Below are positions 7,931 through 59,312 of a stretch of DNA of 64,000 bases, in pieces. Within the stretch, counting starts at the first letter, position 1; each line of letters opens with the position of its first letter. Origin of the DNA: Paramacrobiotus metropolitanus (Eukaryota; Tardigrada; Eutardigrada; Parachela; Macrobiotidae). Made by a program: the position numbers and the translations under genes. Under the pieces are notes generated by a model, which was not told where the DNA came from, ran no database searches, and was given only the letters and a program-made list of their open reading frames with translations. Location of the stretch: NCBI RefSeq assembly GCF_019649055.1, contig NW_026570269.1:744001-808000 (forward strand), given 5' to 3'.

Positions 7931-10900
7931 TCAACTTTCGCTTCTTAGAATCGTCACTTTTTGACCATTTTTGCCAACCTTATCGTTCATCAACTTGACA
8001 TAAAAATGAATCCGTATTTGGAAATAATAAGTTGCACTTTTACGAAAAATTTCGGTCCAAGAGCAATCAGCAAGGCATGGGGACCGTAAATTACATTTTC
8101 TGGTAACGAAATCCTCCATGGCGTATTTTTCAGCGAAAGCAAGAAGTAATTGGCGCGGAGAAAGGTAAAGGACTTCGTCAATCTGTTTCTGGAATATCCG
8201 CTCAAGACTGCACATCATGTCATAAAAGACACCCCAACAAAGTTCAAACCTCCGTCGTCTTTCATTTCTGTCAGTTGGGCAAAATCAGGAGTCCCTTTCG
8301 AAGAATCTAACCAAAATAGCTCCAACCGACAAGAATCACACACTTCGGCCTCCAGCTCTTTTCTTTTATTTGTGAATCCGCTCAAATAGTAAACGACATT
8401 TTTGACAATGTTATCTAGCTGGAACCCTTTCGGTAAAGGTTCTAGTTCTGGAATAACTGGATCTGATTGTGACAGCAGCGCCAGGGTCTTAGCCGCATCG
8501 AGCTTTTTCGAGTACTCTTCGGACAAGTCGAAAATGTTCATTGAACCAATAACATTCTCATCGTCGATTTGCTCGATATTCGTTTTCAAATGCTCGCAAG
8601 CTTTCTGGATATTATGGAACGACAGAATTCGAAAAATAACCAGCATGTTCTCAACTGTTGGATTGATACAGGATCCTCCCAGTTGTCGACACCGTGCGAA
8701 GTACCTCTAGAAAACAAAGAATCATGGAAAAGCTATAAAGAGTTTGCCTAGTATGGTAGAGTATTACCTCGTGCATATCGTTGTTTAAATTCTTCGTTTG
8801 AACGTAAAGCATGCCTTCAGCGAGAAGTTCGGTAGAAAGCCTCTTTATGCTATCCAGGGTGACAACGAGGTGGTTAATTGTACGGTTGCAGAGCCTGTCT
8901 TTCTGGTGAACAGTTTTCTTCCAACGCACCAATCGATCAATATCCGCTTGGATCTTGTCAAGTACATCATTCTCGAAGCGAATGGGAGTGCGCCCAGGAT
9001 GAGGATCGGCCAAAGATGAGTTCATGTGATCGATGCAGCCGTTAAAAAACTCACAATACCGCCGCGTGCAAAGGGTTTTACTCATACGCCCGGCATCCTC
9101 AAGCATTTCCAGTGTGCGTGCGCTTGATGCTGACAGCAGTACAGCCGCATAGTTTACCCTCTGTTGATTGAAGCCATCGGGATAAACCATGGGCTTTTTC
9201 AGTTTGGGATGCATTCTAATTCCTTTGCGATCAGTGTGAGTATCGATGTCGTACATTTGCCGAAAATGACCGAAATCGACATGGAGAACATTACCGTCTT
9301 CGTCAGTATAGAAGTTTCCGCTCTCATCGATGAACTATTAATAATTAATAACAACATTAAATGGTTGGAAAATATCGAGAGGTGTAACCTGCGTTATTAC
9401 CTTAAGCTGTCGGCTACAAATTCCACCCATTTCACTGTTGCGTTTAAACATTCCATTCCGGACGTTTTTCCAGTCGTGTGGTGGGTCAATAATGATGTAT
9501 CTCGGCTTTCCGTTAACTGTGACAGTTGGAGTATCATATTTTTCGAAATCAAATCCGAATTTTGTAATGGCTTGAATGTTGCTTGTACCGGCATCCACGA
9601 TAAACCCGCGCGTTTGTATTCCAGTCTGATCCAAAAGTTCAATTCCTTCCTCTATAATCTTTTTCAGAATGAAGCCAGGAGTCTGAGAATTAGACAGAAA
9701 AATGCCAATCGGTTGAAATAGCTTTCGCTTTATACTTCGCACCAACAACCAGGGCGTGATCGGCAGGCTTCATGAGTTGTTCTTCCGTGAGTTCTGCGTT
9801 ATGTTTACCAAAGTCCACCGTACCCAAAACACGATCTTCAGAATGCACGTATCGATAGTTTTTCCTGCTGAGCTGCAGTTCATCGAGGGTCATCATGAAA
9901 TCCTGCTCGCCTTTAGGTCGCTTTTCAGCCCATTTTTCTACACAATGGAGCACTAGCTTATCGAAACCGGTGTCTTTGGAGAAACGGGCTACACGCAATC
10001 GTATTGTTTCCGGATGCGGCAACGGAATTCCACGATCGCGCAGAAATGCGTAAGCTCTCGGGCTATAAAGTGCAAGCGCACAGCGAAATCCATATAATCA
10101 GATTTATACTTGGTTCTGTCGAATTTATTTTTGCGAGAAATGTCCATAAATTCGGTCAAAAGGTTACGCGACTCTGCAGGCACTAGCTTGGATTCTTCCA
10201 ACTCTTTAACCATTACCCGCAATCGTTCCAGTTCGTCGTCTTGCTTGCGTATTTTTGATTCCCGTCGACTGACGCGTGCTCTCAGCGCGTTCTGGGTTTT
10301 AGATGCGGACTCGGAGCGACTTCGCAGGGTTTTCACGTAATCCGCAGTTGACAGGTACTGCTTCCGGTATTCCTTGCATGATAAACAACATGACCTTTTT
10401 CCCAGGTAAGCTAGTTCGCAACCAGCATTCGCTTCGTACGACGGACATAAATTGCTGGTGCCAGATGAGTTGATGCCAGATCCACGACTGTTTGAAAGCT
10501 GGAAATCTGAGTCACAGTGATCTCGTTACCGGTATACAACTTGTTGCGAATGCGCAGTGTGATATGCAGCGTGCTTTGGATTCCAATCGTGAAAATGTTC
10601 TCAAAGGTCACCGGATTAACACGAAGAACGACAACAGCATTCTCGCTTTCCACTACAAATGCGACCCAAAACGGAGGAAGGCGCAGTAAGTCCAGATTAT
10701 TTTCCAGCATTTTAAAGCTGAACACGACATTTTCAAGGTCAATTTCAACTGGCTCACACGTGGACAATCCTCCAAAGCTAGCGTTAAGTTCACTTATGCT
10801 GTCGTTCAAATTCTTCTTCTTATCTACACGTGAGAGCTCACCAGATGAATTCATTTGCTGCTTGCCGCGCCCTACAAGCAGCGGTTCCGAGCGCCCAATT

Positions 10901-11258
10901 TTGGTGATTCAGCTGCTTTCCGCTGACAAATTTCAAGGGGGAAGCTCTGATTTTCTTCCGCCGGGATATGCCCAAGAAGGATCGACGGTACTGCTGTTGA
11001 TCTAAGTCGGAGACCTCCTTTCGCCGTAGTTTCGTAGCAATCATTGTGGAAATGATCTGAGCACAGATAAGAATGACGTGTAGGCTTCCATGATGGGCCC
11101 TGTCGTGCAAAAGCTATCCAAAGGGCAGACCGCACACCGTCAGCGCTCGCATCAGGAAATTTGTGGAATGTTTGCAAGCATTCAGCCGCTGCCAGACTTG
11201 CTGACTTGAAATTCGGGCAGGCAATACATTTGCGTCCGCCCATTATCTCTGCAATCAT
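7931..11258 (-). pseudogene. P-element-type transposase with THAP domain, frame-broken
   Basis: The N-terminus (ATG at 11258) is a THAP zinc finger: CIACPNF, FHKFPD, W-x-x-F and YLCSDHF give the C2CH pattern. Then come a variable region (10854-10411), a coiled-coil segment (about 10336-10150), and the P-type block YSPRAYAFLRD with GIPLPHPETIR. The catalytic domain shows LDELQL (candidate first Asp, codon 9882-9884), IIDPPHDWKNVRN (second Asp, 9485-9487) and LNNDMHE followed by YFARCRQLGG (candidate Glu, 8768-8770). Two introns are clean and keep the frame: 9335-9400 and 8707-8767. The frame breaks three times without room for an intron: near 10064-10072, 9735-9750 and 8205-8225. It is therefore probably inactive, unless these are sequencing indels. 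The family identity is strong. Confidence 0.85.
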
Positions 11259-11533
11259 GCAAAATATTTTTTCTTTCGAGTGCCCAGATGCGTTTATTTA
11301 TGAGCATATCGAATTACCCCAATACTGCTTGCAGAACATGATCTTTGGAATTTGTGGTTTATTGGGGATAGGGCACAATATTTCTGTAAGGCCTATGTCT
11401 TTTAATGCATCAAATCTGATTGTAGCATATGTTTACTGAACGCAACCATAACTTACTAGAAAACAAGAAACTTTATTTCAAGCAAGAAGCAAAAATTCAG
11501 GCCAACAAGCAACGACAACTCAAGATAACAGTT

Positions 11534-41656: not shown

Positions 41657-42058
41657 TCAATATTCCGGTTTGTTGAAACAACGATATCGTACGCGCAGTG
41701 GACGTCCGGTGCAACCAACTTCGGTCGAGGGATCTCTTGCTCTGAGTAAGCATCTGGACTTTCCGTGACAGGACTTTTTGACAGCTTCCAGTGCCACAGT
41801 AGAGCGACATTTTCGCTGATAGCTTCCCGTTACTTCTCGCGGGCCGTAATAGGCGCTATATATCATTATCAGCGGCCGGGTGGGACTCAAAACACAGTTA
41901 AGTGGCTGTTCACTACCATGGTCCAGAATAATATTCGTTACATTCACACCTTTCTCGATGGTTGTGAAGGAATGCGATGTGGCTTTTCTCTGTGCCGCCG
42001 TTTGCGTCCAAATTGATAGCAAAACTAGGATGGCAGATAATAGCGTTTTCTCATGCAT
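41657..42058 (-). CDS. Secreted SUEL-type (rhamnose/galactose-binding) lectin
   Basis: An intact single-exon ORF of 133 residues. ATG at 42058 begins MHEKTLLSAILVLLSIW, a typical signal peptide, with cleavage likely after TQTAAQ. An N-glycosylation site (NVT) follows. The SUEL lectin domain covers about residues 50-128: IMIYSAYYGP, QRKCRS, VKKSCHGKSRC and GCTGRPLRVRYRC, in the order C..Y-G-x..C..C-x-G-x-x-x-C..C..L-x-V-x-Y-x-C. Family members bind galactose or rhamnose and occur in egg lectins and adhesion receptors such as latrophilins. Here it is a single domain with no membrane segment, so it is probably secreted. Ligand preference cannot be read from the sequence. Confidence 0.88.
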   Translation of the reverse strand: MHEKTLLSAILVLLSIWTQTAAQRKATSHSFTTIEKGVNVTNIILDHGSEQPLNCVLSPTRPLIMIYSAYYGPREVTGSYQRKCRSTVALEAVKKSCHGKSRCLLRARDPSTEVGCTGRPLRVRYRCFNKPEY

Positions 42059-43770
42059 GTTTAGCAACCAAGCACAAAACAATATCGTAATGATAAAATC
42101 TTTCAGTTTTATTAGGTTAAATAATTTCAGTGATACTGTCTCGTTAAAAACCCTAGGAAGAGTCTAGTTTACTCGTATTTATAAGCACTGTATCCGCTCG
42201 GTAACGTTGCACCACAGAGTGCGGTGTTAAAATTAATGGTTTCATTACACTTTAACGCTCTCAGTGGTTGTTAAGCAAATATTAGTACTTCTACCTGTAC
42301 TCTCCATACGTAGATCTCCGTATATTCATGAGATGCGCAGTGACCGGAAGTATGGCTCTGTAATCAGTTCTTCATCTCATATCTGCCTTTTTGGCTCACT
42401 GTTCGGTACAGCAAGTTTTCTTAATCGATGGTATCAGATACAAGTACTGTACTAGAGTATGATAAATCTGACACCAACCAGTCCACTTCGTATGAAATAT
42501 AGCCGCTAACGTTGCAAAAAATCAACCTTCAGGGCCACATCAAACGCCTTGGTTACTATCCACCGACTACTTTTGCATTTGTACAACCATGCGTTTTCGA
42601 ATTCAAATGTCACAATTTCATTTCGTTAAATTAGTATATCAAATTTTTCAATTTGTGCAAAATTTTTGTAATGGTTCCAGATAGATCTAGAGTTCAGATC
42701 TGCCCAGTTTCCAGCAAGAGTACAACAATTTTCCAGAAACAACTCGGCACTGCCGAATCGAAGTTAGAGCTGCCGAAGAGTGCTTTTAGCTGGCAGTTGG
42801 TAGTACCGGTATCTGCGCCCTTGTTAGTAGCTATTTTAAGAGCAGTTCGGTTTTCAGACCACGAACTCGAAGATCAGATTCAGCAAAGATGTGCAATAAC
42901 TGCAAGCCTGCTGTAACATTATGGCTCTTAAAAAATTTAACGCAAGCCAAGTACGTCTCGCCGAAACGTATGCGCGACAACCTAAAAACACGTATCAATG
43001 TCGTCTAAAATGTTAAACATAGAAATACACCATCTCTGGTTCGCAAAAATGTATCCAGCTATTGAAGTAGCTTTTGAGATCATACTTTGAGCGAGGATCA
43101 CACTTTCACAGGAGAAACTGAAGTGGTGTTAATTACGCAAATTTCCTTAGCCAGTACACACCCGGCACTGGTAAAAAAATCGCTTAATAGGAAGTGTTTT
43201 TCTGAACGTCAAGAGATATGTAATAAGCCATTGTTGGAGCGAATGAGGCTGTATGGCAGCAAGTGGAATTAAATGGTTTTCTGATAAATTATGGATACAA
43301 AACCAGGTTTGCGCATGGTGAAAATTAAAATACTTTAATAATTCTACGACCTTTTCTACTCTACCCTAGACGACAAGATCGCAACTCGCAAGTAACAATC
43401 TCGAGAATCATTTTGCTAGCATCAAGTACAGATCCTGTGTATTGCTCGTTATACGGTTATACCGGCACGTTTATGTATTGTAAGTTAAGTTTTATCTATA
43501 GAAAATATTAGCAGCAGTTTTATGTGATACTTCATCTGTTAGTCTATAAAATATACGTATTGCCAAACCCGTTTTAGGTGGCTCTGGCACTGTCAGCGTT
43601 ACTCGCTCACGCTTCTGTCATCTTCTATAAATGCCTGTACAATATTATAGGAACTTCCCATTAAAGGCCTAGTGGATTTTTTACGGCGATTTTATAAACC
43701 GAATTTTACTAATCCGAGTTCGCCAACTGATACGAAGTTCTTACTTCTTACTAAGCTTTATTTTCAACAG
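42059..43770. other. Intergenic region, lectin to LITAF gene
   Basis: No certain coding sequence. An 87-codon frame at 42653-42916 has no recognisable domain. The first exon of the LITAF gene should lie somewhere here. Confidence 0.35.
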
Positions 43771-50283: not shown

Positions 50284-50881
50284 TTACTTAAGATCGAATA
50301 TCTCTTCCCCGTTGCATCCGCTTTTATTGCAATTGCATACAGTGACTTTTGCTCCTGTTACTTCTGAAAAGCGCATACATTAAAATTTAATGGCTTAGAT
50401 GCATATGCTTTGAACTAACGGAAAGAAACTATCATGACGTCGTAGTGCTCACCTGTTTCCTTGCACTCATCATCGCCAACCGAAACGTTTGCTATACCAC
50501 GATATTTCCCGCAACCCCGAGATGCTGCTTGACCTACAACAAGACAATTTTTCCGATTTACAAGTTAGAAGCAATATCACTCTACTCACGATTCGCGGCA
50601 TTTACTGACTTACCGCTGCCAACTTTCGTAACAGATTTCCAACAAAATGTTTCGTTATCCGCGCTACATGTTTGTTTCATGTCGGCCCCTGGTTTCAGGC
50701 ATTGCGGCTGGTCGGCAGAGCAAATGTAGCACTCCATCGTACCCGCAGCGCCAGCGTCCAGAATGGCTGAAAATGTGTATTGTACTTAAAACGTTTCTGC
50801 AACATCAATTTTGTTTTACATTATCTTACCAGTGACGGAAGCCAGAACTACTATACCAAGTATAATACCGCATTTTGCCAT
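50284..50881 (-). CDS. Secreted Ly6/uPAR (three-finger fold) protein
   Basis: Four short exons: 50881-50830, 50766-50614, 50533-50453 and 50363-50284, all joined in phase 1, 121 residues. The start MAKCGIILGIVVLASVT is a signal peptide. The mature part opens with MECYICSADQPQC and continues KQTCSADNETFCWK, SRGCGKY and DDECKE, and ends VCNCNKSGCNG. That gives ten cysteines in the C-x-x-C opening and C-N-C-x-x-x-x-C-N closing arrangement of the LU domain. In this family such proteins act as GPI-anchored receptors or secreted modulators. No hydrophobic tail follows CNG here (it ends EEIFDLK), so it is likely secreted. It is compact, with introns of 63-89 bp. Confidence 0.88.
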
Positions 50882-52573: not shown

Positions 52574-53186
52574 ATGTCTCGTTTGATCAAATTTCTGAAT
52601 ATTGGAGTAGGCACGCTAATCATTAGCTGCTTGAGCATCAATGCATTGACGACCCCTTTGAACGGCTCCAGAGGAAATTTAAACCTTCCTAATGTGCGAT
52701 GCTTTGTGCGCGAAAACTATCGGATTCCTCAAGCAGGAAAAATTGTGGTGGTATTTCATAACGCTGGAAACTGCACGTGCCAAGGGGCCGCGGATCAAGC
52801 CAGCATTCGACGTGGTAAATACGGAAGTAAAAAATTCCATGCCGTTTTAGTGGTTACGCACAAGCTCATACAGAAATTGTACTTATTGCACATCGCAGAA
52901 TACAAATTAGTTAAACCCACAAGTCTCATGTTAATGTTTCAAATAACAGCCAGCGATGGTAATTTGGGCGCATTAATAAATGCTTCCTAGACTACATACT
53001 CGGTTACTCAAATTGCTTCTGATTTCAGGAATCGCCGATTTTGTCCCACAGTGCATTTCCGGTGGTACCGGGTTTAACAAAACGCAGAAATGGAATTTCA
53101 TGAATCAATGGTGGTGTGTGGATCAAACTGGAAATCCCCGTACTGAACCCGCAGACATCAAGCCAGATCTCATACCGAGATGTTGA
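52574..53186 (+). CDS. Small secreted thyroglobulin-1-like protein, paralogue 1
   Basis: Two exons (52574-52826 and 53029-53186), 136 residues. A signal peptide (IGVGTLIISCLSINA) is followed by the first cysteine in VRCFVREN, then a GNCTC motif. After the phase-1 intron come FVPQC, QWWCVDQTGN and a final IPRC. The second half follows the thyroglobulin type-1 pattern (P-x-C, W-C-V-D-x-x-G, C). The Tg1 Q-C and the first C of C-W-C-V are absent. It is the most divergent of four neighbours: it has an expanded GGTGFNKTQKW loop, lacks the GW-x-NVGG motif, and lacks the second intron present in paralogues 3 and 4. A polyadenylation signal AATAAA lies at 53295. Related domains inhibit proteases or bind growth factors, but no function can be claimed here. 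Confidence 0.78.
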
Positions 53187-54378
53187 CCGCCACCACCACG
53201 ATACAGCTGAAAATGCTTGGAAGTTTAACGATGGGTTCTTTCATTTTATATTTATATATAGAATGTAAATTATATTATGTAGATAGCAAGCTTTAATAAA
53301 GCTTTGCGATAAAAAATTACTTATAACATAAACAATCTCATGATGTGATTACATATAAAAGTACTCGTCAATTTAAGTCGTTGTCTGCGTTTGACCGCAT
53401 CAGGCCGGCAGGTATAAAGGAAAAGCGCCTAAATTTGACTGAATGATAGTGAATACTACGTATATTGATTTATACTTCTTTATATCTGTAGTATAAAAAG
53501 GGTCACCTTGATATAATATAATTCACAAATTCCGCTCTTCCAAATTTCTTATTGCTGCTGCCTTCTGTAATTAGGGAAGCTGATTTTTGGCAAGAATGGA
53601 ACGTGAAACAACGTTGGATAATAACTAAATCTTGTGAGGTTTGCTTTTCAATCCTTCTAGATACTTCCGCACTTGATGGAACGTGCGTAATACTGGATCA
53701 TAAAGTATCACCGAATTTAGTGAGCAGGCTGTGGTTACTCGCACACTATCCAGAAAGGGCAGAAGGCAAATAGTTATGAATATTATTAAATTTTACTATA
53801 TTTACACTGTACTTCTATACACAGCATTCGAACAAGACAGTCAGCATATAAGTCTGCAATTGTGCGGTGATAGAAGTTTTTTATATATGGCGTGACCTTT
53901 AACGTACATTTATTGTTGATATTATAAGCACGAAAGTTTTGTTTTCCGTGTAGCGGCAATATTGCGCTGTTTTTCATTCATACATAAAACGCATGCTTCC
54001 AGTGAACAACACTTGTAAGCTGCATCATAATTTGCCTGTCAAAGCACTACTGATCTGACTAATCTGCCGAATAAGCTCAAAACCTTAGTGTTATTTCCAT
54101 ATCTTGACGCGTTCCTGGAACTTTTGACCAGTGATGATGGGTAATTATTTCTGAACCCGGAATGTATAAGAAGAAAAGCCACATAAATATTGCAAAATCA
54201 TAGAGCCGAAAATTCTATTGTGCAAAATATCGTATAAATTACTACTAAAGTGGAAGTCGGTCAAATATATACTAGAACGCATGCGATACACAACTCTAGG
54301 TCTGTGATAGTTTTGTCGGAAACTTTCCTACTGGACTCGCGGATTTCAATTTTTCATTTAGTGGATCAGCACAAAAAC
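53187..54378. other. Spacer between Tg1-like paralogues 1 and 2
   Basis: Holds the 3' end of paralogue 1 (AATAAA at 53295) and a TATAAAAAG at about 53492 that is not followed by a recognisable gene. No other feature. Confidence 0.35.
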
Positions 54379-55075
54379 ATGGAACAACAGCGCAGGATTT
54401 TAGTCATCTGTGTTGTTGGACTCTCTTTCCATGGCTTAGCAGCTGCACTCTGCTTTAGAACCGGTCTGATAACTGTGACAACCGCAAATGGACCCAGGGA
54501 GATTTCGGGATGGCAAAATGTTGGCGGCTGTACATGTGCGGAAGCTCGGGCAAGAGCTCTGAACGTCGATAAGCGGAGTAAGTGGTTTAAAACTGGCTCT
54601 CGATGTTCGTCGTCCATTAAATTTATCAAAAACAGTACCATATTACATGGAAAAAATGTATTTGTCGCAAATCAAATTGTGTGTAATCGTATGCACATAA
54701 TACGCTATATATTTTAAATGCGTTATAGTACTTAATAATTTTATCGATAGGGATTATAAAACGTCGTAATCTCTTGGATAATCATAAGCGATTGGTTGAA
54801 CCTTCAAGTTAATTTAAATGTCATGCCAAGTGAAGCGAAGATGATGATATTATTCTATTATTTCATGTATATGATTAATATCAATGCATTCACTTGCAGC
54901 GGTTGGACAACTCACGCCTAATTGCGACGACTCCAACCCCGACCGCTTCCAAGTGTACCAGCACTGGGGCGCTGTGGGATCTGCGTGGTGTGTCGATCCC
55001 GTAACGGGAAACCAGAATTCAGAAACAAGGTTCCGAGGCGTCGGTAACATTCCCTGCATGCCTTCAGCTGCATAA
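54379..55075 (+). CDS. Small secreted thyroglobulin-1-like protein, paralogue 2
   Basis: Two exons (54379-54577 and 54900-55075), 124 residues. MEQQRRILVICVVGLSF starts a signal peptide. The first cysteine is in ALCFRTGL, and the conserved block is ISGWQNVGGCTCAEARA. After the phase-1 intron the C-terminal half reads LTPNCDDSNPD, GAVGSAWCVDPVTGN and NIPC. Six cysteines remain in the mature protein, in the same order as its neighbours. Like paralogue 1 it has only one intron, so the second intron was lost or never gained. Confidence 0.82.
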
Positions 55076-56320
55076 CCACACTTCTGCTACGGAAAATCAT
55101 ACGTTGCTGCACTTGCGCGACTTTATATTGGTTCCTAAAGATCAAACGATTTTGCTTAAGAAATTCAAACAAAATCATTGATCCCGTCAGATTTTGTTGT
55201 TTGTCGAGATTAAAAGCCCATTCCTTTAGCATTAGTTTAGCTGCTTTAATTTCTTTAGCTTGCTGCCGTTGCAACCACAAAAATCGCATATTGAGTTTCC
55301 GTTGTCTCTGATTACGTCTTTGCGTGCTAATTGTTAGGATGATAATCATGTCGGTAAATAGTCAAATGAACAAGGAAAAAATTTTAAGTCCTGCTTTAAC
55401 TAATGATTACTATTCGTAATTATTTAACTAATTATTACTGGTCACACGCGTATCTCGAAATGTGCTTAAAATTGGTGCAAAATGGTAAGGTTTCATTTAG
55501 TTTAAGCGCGCACCAGGTGGAAATTACGTTCTTCCCTTGGAAAGTCAAGTTTTGAGCTTTGGGCATGTAGGAAGCATTTTTGAAGTTGTAGAGACATTAC
55601 GAAAGTTTTGATTCGTTATGACGACACTTCCATCAGAAGATGGATGTCTACCAAAAACAATTGAAAAAGATGGTAAAAGCAGTTGTAACATCTTAATTAA
55701 GCGACTAAGCTGCGCTCCGGTCTGCCAATGCACGCCAAAGTGCATTTTCATAGTTAAATTAGCGATAGTTTCCGTCAGTGCAAAATCATATAACGGAAAT
55801 GAAGTTAACATTTATTTAGCGTTCCTAAGACGCACTATATACTGCACTATAGCCGAAGCAAACCCAACCGAAGTGTTAGAAAACTATACGAGCTTAATTA
55901 ATTAACAACAACATTAACAATATTACGAACAATTATATGAGGCAACACTACACAAACTACCTTATAATTTTGGACTAAGAAGATAATAAACGTATTAAGA
56001 TTTATTTACAACAACTTTAAAAATACAAGAAGCTAGTAAGAAGTATTATTTTGTTTGCGTATTTGAACCGTCCACATACAACTGTATTTCGGTAATTCTA
56101 TCACCAAACCACATTATTATATAATGTCCAGGCATCGGTTAATTATAATTGGCGGCTATCTGCTGCTGCCAGCCAGTTACAACAACTGGCTACAGTTGTA
56201 AGCAGTATTGTGTAACGCTTTTTTAAGCCCCCGAGGAGAATGACGACTGCATATACACGTAAAAGAATTATTGAGAATTTTACATCCAAAATTCTGTACG
56301 ATCCCATACGAATTTCAAAA
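55076..56320. other. Spacer between Tg1-like paralogues 2 and 3
   Basis: AT-rich. A plus-strand frame at 55618-55905 contains several cysteines (SAPVCQC region) but has no signal peptide, no splice partner and no known domain. Confidence 0.35.
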
Positions 56321-57129
56321 ATGGCGAACACCAAATTCCTGGTCGCTAGTGTTTTGTTCTGCCTCTGTATCGAGGCCATATTGGCCAAGCCGCCCAAGAC
56401 ATGCATGGACCAGGGAGACGTTTTTGTGGCCGGTTCCAACAAGAGAATCCAAGGATGGACGAACGTCGGCGGCTGCACATGCGAGAGAGCCAGGAAGGAG
56501 GCTGATAAGCCAGGAAGTAAGAATTCTTAATTTTCCATTCTAGGAGCCCGTAAATTAACGCTGTGCACTGTTGAACCGTAAGGCGGCAGTTTGCATTCGA
56601 CAATCTACCGTTAAATTAAAGCTTGTGCATCTACCTAGATGTAATGTGATTCGGATCTGTACACACGTAAACACTGCCAAATAATAGGTTTTCGAGCTTC
56701 GTTATGACTGTTAAGAGCGCAAACTGTTCACAGGATTTAAGCACAAGCGGTAGTGCAACCTTTATTGTACATAATCATTTTCTATACTCTACTCGTAGGG
56801 ATTGGAGGGTACATTCCCCAGTGCGACGCAAGTGGCAAATTTCAACGTCGGCAAGGTTGGGGTAGTACCGGCAGTTCATGGTGAGCAAGAGTTGTCCTAC
56901 ATGTACAAAAACGTTTTAGGGTATTATGATTTGATCGGGAGTATGGTTTAAAAATGAACTGAAAAAGTGCTCCACAATAACTAAACAAATCCTTCAGAGG
57001 TATGATACTCGAACATAACGTAAGTATTAAAACTGCGTTGTCTTGTGCAGGTGTGTGGACGATCGCGGAAACCAAATCTCGGAAGTGAAACCACCGGGAC
57101 GAAGCTCCAACGTCAAACTGAACTGCTAA
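56321..57129 (+). CDS. Small secreted thyroglobulin-1-like protein, paralogue 3
   Basis: Three exons (56321-56516, 56799-56880 and 57051-57129), 118 residues. Signal peptide MANTKFLVASVLFCLC to ILA. The mature protein has CMDQGDVFVAGSN, IQGWTNVGGCTCERAR, GGYIPQCDASGKFQRRQGWG, SSWCVDDRGNQISE and a final LNC. Intron 1 is phase 1 before the GGY motif. Intron 2 is phase 2 and splits the Trp codon of WCVD. Six cysteines, with a Tg1-like second half: where Tg1 has Q-C this protein has Q-G-W, and where Tg1 has C-W-C it has S-W-C. It is very close to paralogue 4, indicating a recent duplication. Confidence 0.87.
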
Positions 57130-58704
57130 ACTACAAATGCATATTTTGCTGTAATGCGAACCTGTCTTCGTAAGGCGTGTTCTATATGCAACCTTTTGCA
57201 CTCTCGATGCTTCCGAATTGCTTGCCCGGTAGCTTGTAAATTTCTGAACTTCGAGTGCTTGACGTGCCGCGTATAAAATTTACGACAGCGTAAGTTAATT
57301 CGTGTACAATGTTAATTCGTTAATTCGTATACAAAAACAGTTTTACAAAAACAACAAAAGCTCATTTAACGCCGCCACCTCTTCCATTGTTCCGAGTGGG
57401 AAGCGGCATTGCCTCGCTGAATTTCACGCGACAAACGTCGGCGTGGAAATTCCTGAAAGCGAGGTTCACCCGTATGCATCTGGATTCCGAAATCGCTTGC
57501 CGATTTCTTTCACTAAGGCGGTGGCCGACTTTCTGAGCTTCCGACGCAAGAAGTGAAGTTGCCAATGATTTACCAAGTAACATCTACATACGCGGAGTTC
57601 AGAGAATTCCCGACCATGAAGGGCAATCATTTACTTCGAAATTAAAACATTTTGTGTTTGCGGTTTTAGTTATTTGACCTCACAGAACTTTTCAAAGAAG
57701 CACGACAACGTGCAACACAATAAATACTCTTATCGTTCCTGTTCTAAGTATTCTTAAGTACTGTATTTGCAATTACTGTAGTCTTGTGTTATCACTATTG
57801 CTGCCCATCATAAATAAATTAGTACGAGTAGTACTGCGCAGAAATATTTACATGATGGGCATAAATACTCACAAACAAATGCATACTGTCATAATATATT
57901 ACCAGTCGATTGTGCATGCCTCAAAACACTCAACTGCGTCTGCAACCACGGCCATATACAGCAACTACATACATAAACACTTCAGCGAAAACATTGGCTT
58001 TGCTGTGGAGGGGTTCGTAGCATAGATCCAGGAATTAAATACTTATAAACTGCGACAACTAAATAGTAGCGTAGCCTACGTAAGCAGTTCTCTGTACTGT
58101 AGATATATTCTAGGTCTTATAAGTTATAACATATCTGTTAACTTACTACTGACATCTGACAGTGTCTCTCTGTGGTAATTTTAAAAGAGTTTTCCAAAAT
58201 CGTGGAAACCTATGTTTGCAGTGGTTACTCGCTACAGAAGCACAACCGTTACAATAATATTTAATTATTTCTACCTCGAATATTCTGGCGATATTTTTAT
58301 TGTAATTTCAGACAATCAGTGGCATATCTGATGCGTATTTGGATTTGGTGGAATTCTGTGTGCAACGGTGAGTAATCTCAGAAATCTTGACCTTTGCAAT
58401 GTCGCATATCGACAGTATCAAGTACTATATATCAACAAACATTTCGTTTGTGTGTACGAAGATACCTGGAGCGCTTTTCTCTGCCAGTTAACCTGAACGG
58501 TAGTTTTCGAGGATTTTGCAGATGTTGAGCCGCGATAATAAGACTTCACTGCAGCTAGATTAAAACTTAACTGATAAAATTGACGGCTTTCCCACAATTG
58601 TACAGAGCCAGTATATATATCGGGAAACCGTTTCCTGTATAATTACTAAATTCTGTTGCAGACTTGCAGTGTCCCATTTCTTATTTTCAAAATACACCAC
58701 AGAA
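57130..58704. other. Spacer between Tg1-like paralogues 3 and 4
   Basis: A GC-richer open segment at about 57362-57556 (VEIPESEVHPYASG to a stop) looks coding-like but has no start or partner exon. AATAAA at 57720. TATATATA near 58611 is a plausible promoter for paralogue 4, about 90 bp before its ATG. Confidence 0.35.
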
Positions 58705-59312
58705 ATGGCGTGTCTTAAGCTGATCCTTAGCCTTGCCCTTGTCTTTTGTTTACTTGACCACATTGTCTGCGAAGAAAAGAAATGCTTGGAAAGGGCGGAT
58801 ATCACCGTGGCGGGTAGTAATAACAAAATCCAAGGATGGAAGAACGTCGGCGGCTGCACGTGCACGGAGGCTCGTAACTTAGTCAACAAACCCGGAAGTG
58901 AGCAGTGTGCCAGTGACCAACCGACTGATGATAAAAATGTAAATTTTAATCTGTTTTTACATAATGTCATTGTGTCCGCAGGGATCGGAGGCTATGTCCC
59001 TCAATGCGACGAACACGGTAAATTCCATCGCCGACAAGGGTGGGGTGGTGTCGGGTCTGAATGGTACGTGCAGGCTTTTTAATGAAAGTGTTTCTCTGCC
59101 CAAATTATTTGAATCTGACATGCGAGCGTTTCCTTGGATCAGTTGCATTATAAAAAGTACTTTGCATTATAAAAAGTACTAGCTTACCACTGTTAGCTAC
59201 GAGTATTATCAGTATTTTCGCATTGTGGGATTTTTGCAGGTGTGTGGATGAGCACGGCCACCAGATTTCCGAAACCAATTTCCGTGGTAGCCATCCGAAC
59301 CTCAACTGCTGA
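58705..59312 (+). CDS. Small secreted thyroglobulin-1-like protein, paralogue 4
   Basis: Three exons (58705-58897, 58982-59063 and 59240-59312), 115 residues. MACLKLILSLALVFCLL to CEE is a signal peptide. Mature motifs: KKCLERADITVAGSN, IQGWKNVGGCTCTEAR, GGYVPQCDEHGKFHRRQGWG, SEWCVDEHGHQISE and LNC. Intron positions and phases are identical to paralogue 3, and the spacing of all six cysteines is the same. A TATA-like box lies about 90 bp upstream. It is the last member seen in the tandem group. Confidence 0.87.

What the first reader, a model, noticed from the sequence alone, without database searches (positions are those of the whole stretch)
52574..59312. Tandem family of four secreted Tg1-like proteins with a rearranged disulfide pattern
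Four neighbouring same-strand genes encode 115-136 residue secreted proteins. The second half is plainly thyroglobulin type-1-like (GGY-x-PQCD, G-x-F-x-R-x-Q, WCVD-x-x-G, final LNC). Two cysteines of the canonical domain, Q-C and the first C of C-W-C-V, which pair with each other in Tg1 domains, are missing together in all four. A new G-x-C-T-C motif appears in the first half. This looks like loss of one disulfide and gain of another within a lineage-specific expansion.
Basis: partly seen in the sequence, partly recalled or inferred. Interest (0 to 1): 0.75.

Follow-up and report, generated by a model that had tools for sequence, protein, structure and literature searches.

The report
Secreted four-cysteine thyroglobulin-1 protein family
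Four neighbouring genes, and some thirty relatives scattered over the same animal genome, make small secreted proteins built on a known protease-inhibitor-type module with one disulfide fewer than usual and an extra cysteine-bearing segment in front of it; this is a new variant of a known kind, not a new fold.

Summary
Four same-strand genes (52574-59312) give GT-AG spliced, secreted-looking proteins of 132, 124, 118 and 115 aa, all above the Pfam cut-off for thyroglobulin type-1 (Tg1), all lacking canonical Cys3 and Cys4. The interpretation needs correction. The second Cys of C-T-C is the domain's ordinary Cys1; only the first Cys of C-T-C and one N-terminal Cys are extra. Joint absence of Cys3/Cys4 is a known four-cysteine state (saxiphilin domain 2, some thyroglobulin repeats) and occurs in 8 of 22 non-family domains of this genome. 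The four genes belong to a genome-wide family: 31 second-half domains on 16 contigs, none with Cys3 or Cys4. A C-x-C of similar register joins the two Tg1 domains of the tick inhibitor IrThy. The origin of the extra segment is unresolved: tests for a truncated upstream Tg1 tail gave p 0.07 to 0.65. Best reading of function, inferred: thyropin-type cysteine-protease inhibitors with an added N-terminal clamp. Structure models were poor (pLDDT 44.6, 51.2). Genome statistics fit the tardigrade Paramacrobiotus. No other animal genome could be searched, so lineage specificity is untested.

The parts
52574..52814 (+). g1 exon 1: signal-peptide-like start, N-terminal Cys, G-N-C-T-C, Cys1 helix region
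53029..53186 (+). g1 exon 2: P-Q-C (Cys2) to final Cys6, stop; no second intron
   Evidence: PF00086 25.0 bits
54379..54577 (+). g2 exon 1 (ends +49 nt from the first Cys of C-T-C, phase 1)
54900..55075 (+). g2 exon 2: P-N-C to Cys6 and short tail, stop; no second intron
   Evidence: 23.7 bits
56321..56516 (+). g3 exon 1
56799..56880 (+). g3 exon 2: P-Q-C to within the Trp codon of W-C-V
57051..57129 (+). g3 exon 3: C-V-D to Cys6, stop
   Evidence: 43.0 bits
58705..58897 (+). g4 exon 1
58982..59063 (+). g4 exon 2: P-Q-C to within the Trp codon of W-C-V
59240..59312 (+). g4 exon 3: C-V-D to Cys6, stop
   Evidence: 41.6 bits

Best explanation
The four genes are paralogues in a genome-wide family of small secreted proteins, each a single four-cysteine Tg1 domain (Cys1, Cys2, Cys5, Cys6 kept; Cys3 and Cys4 absent) preceded by a roughly 25-residue segment that starts with a Cys and ends at the first Cys of C-x-C. 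Shown here: the anatomy, the family in this genome, a phase-1 intron at a near-fixed place, the joint absence of Cys3/Cys4, and purifying selection between g3 and g4. Inferred: the N-terminal Cys bonds into the C-x-C, so that the segment is clamped onto the Cys1 helix. The tick inhibitor IrThy shows that such a C-x-C can pair crosswise, so 1-2/3-4/5-6 and 1-3/2-4/5-6 are both possible. Inferred function: thyropin-type inhibition of papain-like cysteine proteases, with loops L1-L3 presented to the active-site cleft; without the Cys3-Cys4 clamp loop L2 is freer, and it is two residues shorter in 12 of 21 aligned members, which would tune target choice among paralogues.
For: Tg1 membership: 4 of 4 window proteins over the cut-off; 21 of 21 aligned second halves match PF00086 at E <= 0.01, the first of them under the cut-off at 16.5 bits; their profile matches 10 stretches of thyroglobulin (E 2e-55), saxiphilin, p41 (1icf) and the tick thyropin 8r6t in the PDB. 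Cysteine pair: 31 of 31 family domains and 8 of 22 other domains lack both Cys3 and Cys4, 14 of 22 have both, none of the 53 has one alone (without L018up; Fisher p 3e-6 on the 22, which are not independent). 31 of 32 first-half carriers have a Cys 10-26 residues upstream of C-x-C; the exception, L045, looks decayed. Intron: donor +43 nt from the first Cys of C-x-C in 19 of 23 models (others +46, +46, +49, +49, same phase), acceptor -17 before P-x-C in 20 of 23; I chose sites with that place in mind, three of the donors are GC. IrThy: Cys61-Cys81 and Cys79-Cys103 around Cys79-Lys80-Cys81, inhibition of cathepsins V, K, L (PMC10889554: abstract, passages, section 2.2). Papain-like proteases are present in this genome (66 exon-level PF00112 matches).
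Against: I have no inhibition, expression or disulfide datum for any member. [quoted passage not shown] AlphaFold models were poor (mean pLDDT 44.6 and 51.2) and were made on single open frames, not on whole spliced proteins. The segment has no match in the PDB and none of note in Pfam (two single-member matches to unrelated families, E 0.046 and 0.073). Protease matches do not show co-expansion. Upstream-Cys counts are partly circular, since carriers were recognised by that pattern.
Confidence: 0.5

Rival explanations
1. The extra segment is the remnant (Cys5-Cys6 tail) of an upstream Tg1 repeat: the family arose by truncation of a tandem Tg1 gene, and C-T-C is the old Cys6-x-Cys1 junction.
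For: The tandem Tg1 gene L007 of the same genome has C-A-C and C-K-C junctions, lacks Cys3/Cys4, has one Q-V-W-G-S-T-G, and has candidate introns at the same places (+43/-17 and +37/-17); both L021 frames have a candidate donor at +43. IrThy has a similar register of cysteines. By eye G-x-x-I-x-G matches the Tg1 tail; local hhalign aligns that register.
Against: Statistics do not carry it: profile test p 0.07 against 18 of the 22 own-genome non-family tails, 0.60-0.65 against the family's own tails, 0.45-0.50 against seven junction tails, while the positive control gave p 0.0025, the floor of that test. hhalign: local probability 0.8%, E 0.072; global E 0.46 (one comparison each), and the query carried a constant C-x-C tail that I added. 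L022, L024 and L025 read straight from C-x-C to the next P-x-C without an intron. The C2 gene (L018, L029) seems to hold two copies of the segment, but the stretch between them, which I first took for a Tg1 domain, does not match PF00086, so it decides nothing.
Confidence: 0.3
2. The proteins keep the Tg1 scaffold but are not protease inhibitors: they serve as matrix, cuticle, egg-shell or ligand-binding proteins.
For: Inhibition is confirmed for few Tg1 proteins (PMC7863939 passages); the regions of L2 and L3 vary strongly between paralogues; L016 has lost Cys5 and Cys6.
Against: Equistatin, the salmon egg protein and IrThy, small Tg1 proteins with a tested function, are inhibitors (passages; that they are small and nearly Tg1-only is recalled for the first two).
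Confidence: 0.35
3. One reading: one disulfide was lost and another gained by rearrangement within the domain.
For: The mature proteins of g1-g4 would still have six cysteines (positions, assuming the signal peptide ends before the N-terminal Cys).
Against: The extra pair lies before the canonical domain; the Cys3/Cys4 absence also occurs in L007, L021, L022_1, L024_1 and L025_1, outside this family.
Confidence: 0.1

Closest known systems
Ir-thyropin (IrThy, Ixodes ricinus; PMC10889554; 8r6t in the PDB, named there a putative two thyropin protein, is taken to be it)
   Same: Small secreted Tg1 protein; C-x-C leading from an upstream Cys to Cys1 of the last domain; similar spacing (IrThy 17 and 21 residues on either side; family 22-23 upstream in 14 of 23 models, 19 downstream in 17 of 23)
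   Different: IrThy has two complete Tg1 domains and 12 cysteines; here the upstream part is about 25 residues without a Tg1 match; IrThy's C-domain has a D2 bridge, here Cys3 and Cys4 are absent
Saxiphilin Tg1 domain 2 and four-cysteine repeats of thyroglobulin
   Same: Tg1 domains without the Cys3-Cys4 bridge (alignments; passages)
   Different: Parts of large proteins; no C-T-C segment
p41 fragment of the invariant chain (1icf) and equistatin
   Same: Tg1 fold, proven cathepsin inhibitors (passages)
   Different: p41 has three disulfide bonds; six cysteines per domain of equistatin is recalled
L007 tandem Tg1 gene, contig C177 of the same genome
   Same: No Cys3/Cys4, Cys6-x-Cys1 junctions, similar intron places
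   Different: Three complete Tg1 domains in a row

Membership tests
Tg1 domain (PF00086) | Profile match over the curated cut-off | tested here: met
   4 of 4 window proteins
Tg1 type 1A | Six cysteines, C-W-C-V core | tested here: not met
   Cys3 and Cys4 absent in 4 of 4 window proteins and in 31 of 31 family domains (L018up set aside)
Tg1 type 1B | Four cysteines per domain | tested here: met
   Cys1, Cys2, Cys5, Cys6 kept in 4 of 4 window proteins. One search gives only the number of cysteines in 1B, not which two are missing; Pfam does not split 1A from 1B
Thyropin (MEROPS I31) | Tg1 domain that inhibits a protease | not testable with these tools
   No assay
IrThy-like short two-domain thyropins | Two consecutive Tg1 domains within 180 residues | tested here: not met
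   One PF00086 stretch per window protein; 0 of 19 N-terminal segments match PF00086
IrThy-like disulfide junction | Interdomain pairs through C-x-C | tested here: inconclusive
   Register fits; models of pLDDT 44.6 and 51.2 cannot decide

The most novel reading that the evidence does not exclude
A lineage-specific family of some thirty secreted inhibitors in which a Tg1 domain without its L2 clamp has gained an N-terminal cysteine-clamped hairpin of independent origin; through the C-x-C this adds a fourth, fast-varying contact edge next to L1, and the paralogues form a set of inhibitors with different targets.
Probability: 0.3. Interest if true: 0.5.

Novelty: new variant of a known kind. Interest (0 to 1): 0.35.

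Why it matters
[quoted passage not shown] some thirty small single-domain genes in one animal genome run against that. If they are inhibitors, they are a set of natural variants for learning how Tg1 loops choose cathepsins without the L2 clamp, and for testing whether a C-x-C junction can re-pair. I found no held paper that describes such proteins in tardigrades: 'thyroglobulin type-1' with 'tardigrade' gave 0 papers; the 8 papers for 'thyroglobulin' with 'tardigrade' were judged from titles and starts of abstracts; the Paramacrobiotus transcriptome paper PMC11191345 has no 'thyroglobulin', 'cathepsin' or 'protease inhibitor' in its main text.

Tried and rejected
Truncated Tg1 tail as the origin of the segment: attractive from introns and C-x-C, but three profile comparisons did not support it; kept as a rival. 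A two-unit gene on C2 as proof that segment and Tg1 are copied as one unit: withdrawn, because the upstream stretch (L018up) does not match PF00086; it is also taken out of the counts, which makes one search's 32 of 32 family domains 31 of 31 and the total 53.

Single clade: the tree of 49 of the 54 domains (left out: L010a, L010c, L013, L044, L018up) has 50 usable columns; against the 8 non-family four-cysteine rows the family needs two changes (shuffled mean 7.4), one origin is not ruled out, and 14% of 200 bootstrap trees show it as one side of a branch. The 14 six-cysteine domains sit together with 84/81 support, under the starred level, which would fit one loss of Cys3/Cys4, weakly.

Structure prediction of two open frames: no usable confidence, so no fold search was made.

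Organism: lipocalin searches and a telomere repeat (no match) did not help; genome statistics did. Literature on type 1B: one search gave one paper, a passage of which gives only the cysteine number; another gave none.

Rows not counted: L041 (second half without Cys2, decayed-looking), the broken second half of L009B, fragments at L008 149-286 (-) and L034 1133 (-), and L018up as said. L005 (no AG at the expected acceptor), L009B (stop in the second half) and L013 (frame shift) have no working model.
Full report
What is there. The four genes lie at 52574-59312 on the + strand. Splicing by GT..AG introns gives g1 (2 exons, 132 aa), g2 (2 exons, 124 aa), g3 (3 exons, 118 aa) and g4 (3 exons, 115 aa). 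All four start with a hydrophobic stretch and pass the Pfam cut-off for Thyroglobulin_1. After the likely signal peptide the cysteine order is the same in all: one N-terminal Cys, C-T-C, P-x-C, W-C-V, final Cys (positions). Aligned to the Tg1 domain, the second Cys of C-T-C is Cys1 (C-x-x-A), P-x-C is Cys2, W-C-V is Cys5 and the last is Cys6; Cys3 and Cys4 are absent. g3 and g4 share 55.7% of aligned residues, with dN 0.40 and dS 1.84; the other five pairs are saturated at silent sites, so these are old, constrained duplicates.

The family. The window is contig C49, 744001-808000, of a 169.8-Mb genome. Searches with PF00086 (40 matches), with g4 (41) and with two relatives (42 and 24) led to family loci L001-L006, L008-L019 and L040-L045; such searches score only the best candidates, so numbers are lower bounds. 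19 further genes could be given a two-part model (23 with the window's four), on 12 contigs; others are single exons or broken. I count 31 second-half domains on 16 contigs (without L018up): C2, C4, C5, C8, C13, C49, C51, C103, C109, C125, C169, C179, C213, C251, C276, C279; a decayed-looking copy on C54 (L041) makes a 17th. Two of the 31 (L010a, L010c on C169) are close copies of L008a and L008c on C179, perhaps the other haplotype. 21 of 21 second halves scanned match PF00086 at E <= 0.01.

Gene structure. The intron between Cys1 and Cys2 is phase 1 in all 23 models; its donor is 43 nt after the start of C-x-C in 19 of 23 and its acceptor 17 nt before P-x-C in 20 of 23 (g1-g4). I chose the sites with that place in mind, under the condition that the frame stays open; L014, L015 and L019 then need a GC donor. 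The tandem Tg1 gene L007 has candidate introns at +43/-17 and +37/-17 and C-x-C junctions; L022, L024 and L025 read through that place without an intron. So the intron belongs to part of this Tg1 lineage and is no proof for the origin of the segment.

Cysteine pairs. Over 53 domains of this genome, Cys3 and Cys4 are both present in 14, both absent in 39 (31 family, 8 other), and never alone (L018up removed). phmmer alignments of g4 with PDB chains show the same absence in saxiphilin domain 2 (Q-F ... Y-S-W-C) and in two thyroglobulin repeats (L-Q-A ... T-W-C; S-Q-R ... [quoted passage not shown] Thyroglobulin repeats with four cysteines are called type 1B (passage). The loss is therefore a known state. 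A Cys 10-26 residues upstream goes with C-x-C in 31 of 32 carriers, a partly circular count.

The extra segment. Its consensus is close to C-x(5-6)-[IV]-T-L-P-x-G-x-x-I-x-G-x-x-N-x-G-x-C (C, N, C, C are the invariant columns of 19 rows). A profile of 19 segments finds nothing in the PDB up to E 10; in Pfam two segments give one weak match each, to unrelated families. I tested whether it is the Cys5-Cys6 tail of a lost upstream Tg1 repeat: p 0.07 against 18 of 22 non-family tails of this genome, 0.60-0.65 against 17 family tails, 0.45-0.50 against seven junction tails; the positive control (family tails against the 18) reached p 0.0025, the floor of the test. Not decided. In the C2 gene a second, similar segment seems to lie upstream, but the stretch between is not a Pfam Tg1 domain.

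How it may work. Tg1 inhibitors bring three loops to the active-site cleft of papain-like proteases (PMC7863939 passages; PMC10889554 passages). In IrThy a C-x-C junction of two Tg1 domains is cross-paired (Cys61-Cys81, Cys79-Cys103; section 2.2). By analogy the N-terminal Cys and the C-x-C here hold the segment against the Cys1 helix, next to loop L1. Loop L2 lacks its clamp; in g1-g4 Q-x-W stands in place of Q-C, and 12 of 21 aligned members are two residues shorter there. Inhibition itself is an inference. The genome has 66 exon-level matches to papain-like proteases, so targets exist, which proves nothing about pairing.

Organism. G000 has 169,799,020 bases in 533 contigs; the published Paramacrobiotus sp. 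TYO assembly has 170,483,395 bases in 684 scaffolds with N50 1,033,707 (PMC8277472 passages); contigs C49 and C51 here are 1,043,520 and 1,033,953 long. G+C is 43.5% there and 40.8% in this window. This is an inference, not an identification.

Verdict. The 'rearranged disulfide' is better described as a known four-cysteine Tg1 domain with an added N-terminal cysteine-bearing segment.

Noticed in passing
window 8654-9769 and 10875-11297 (-): Frame with a THAP domain (PF05485) and frames matching TNP-like transposase domains (PF21787, PF21788): a THAP-type transposon by the look of it.
   Followed up: partly
window 41660-42163 (-): Frame with a SUEL lectin match just under its cut-off (31.0 of 31.4 bits).
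   Followed up: partly
window 50582-50785 (-): Short cysteine-rich frame upstream of the cluster that looks like a Ly6/three-finger protein by eye; no Pfam match at E 0.01.
   Followed up: partly
L008 (C179) and L010 (C169): Nearly identical stretches with two family genes each on two contigs: other haplotype or recent duplication.
   Followed up: no
L014, L015, L019: The conserved intron seems to use a GC donor (GGCAAG) at the same place in three members.
   Followed up: no
L022, L024, L025: Two-domain Tg1 proteins whose first domain lacks Cys3/Cys4 and whose second has them, joined by C-x-C.
   Followed up: partly
L018 with L029 (contig C2): A cysteine-rich stretch lies between two copies of the extra segment; it looks Tg1-like by eye but Pfam gives only a weak CBM_19 match (E 0.025).
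   Followed up: partly
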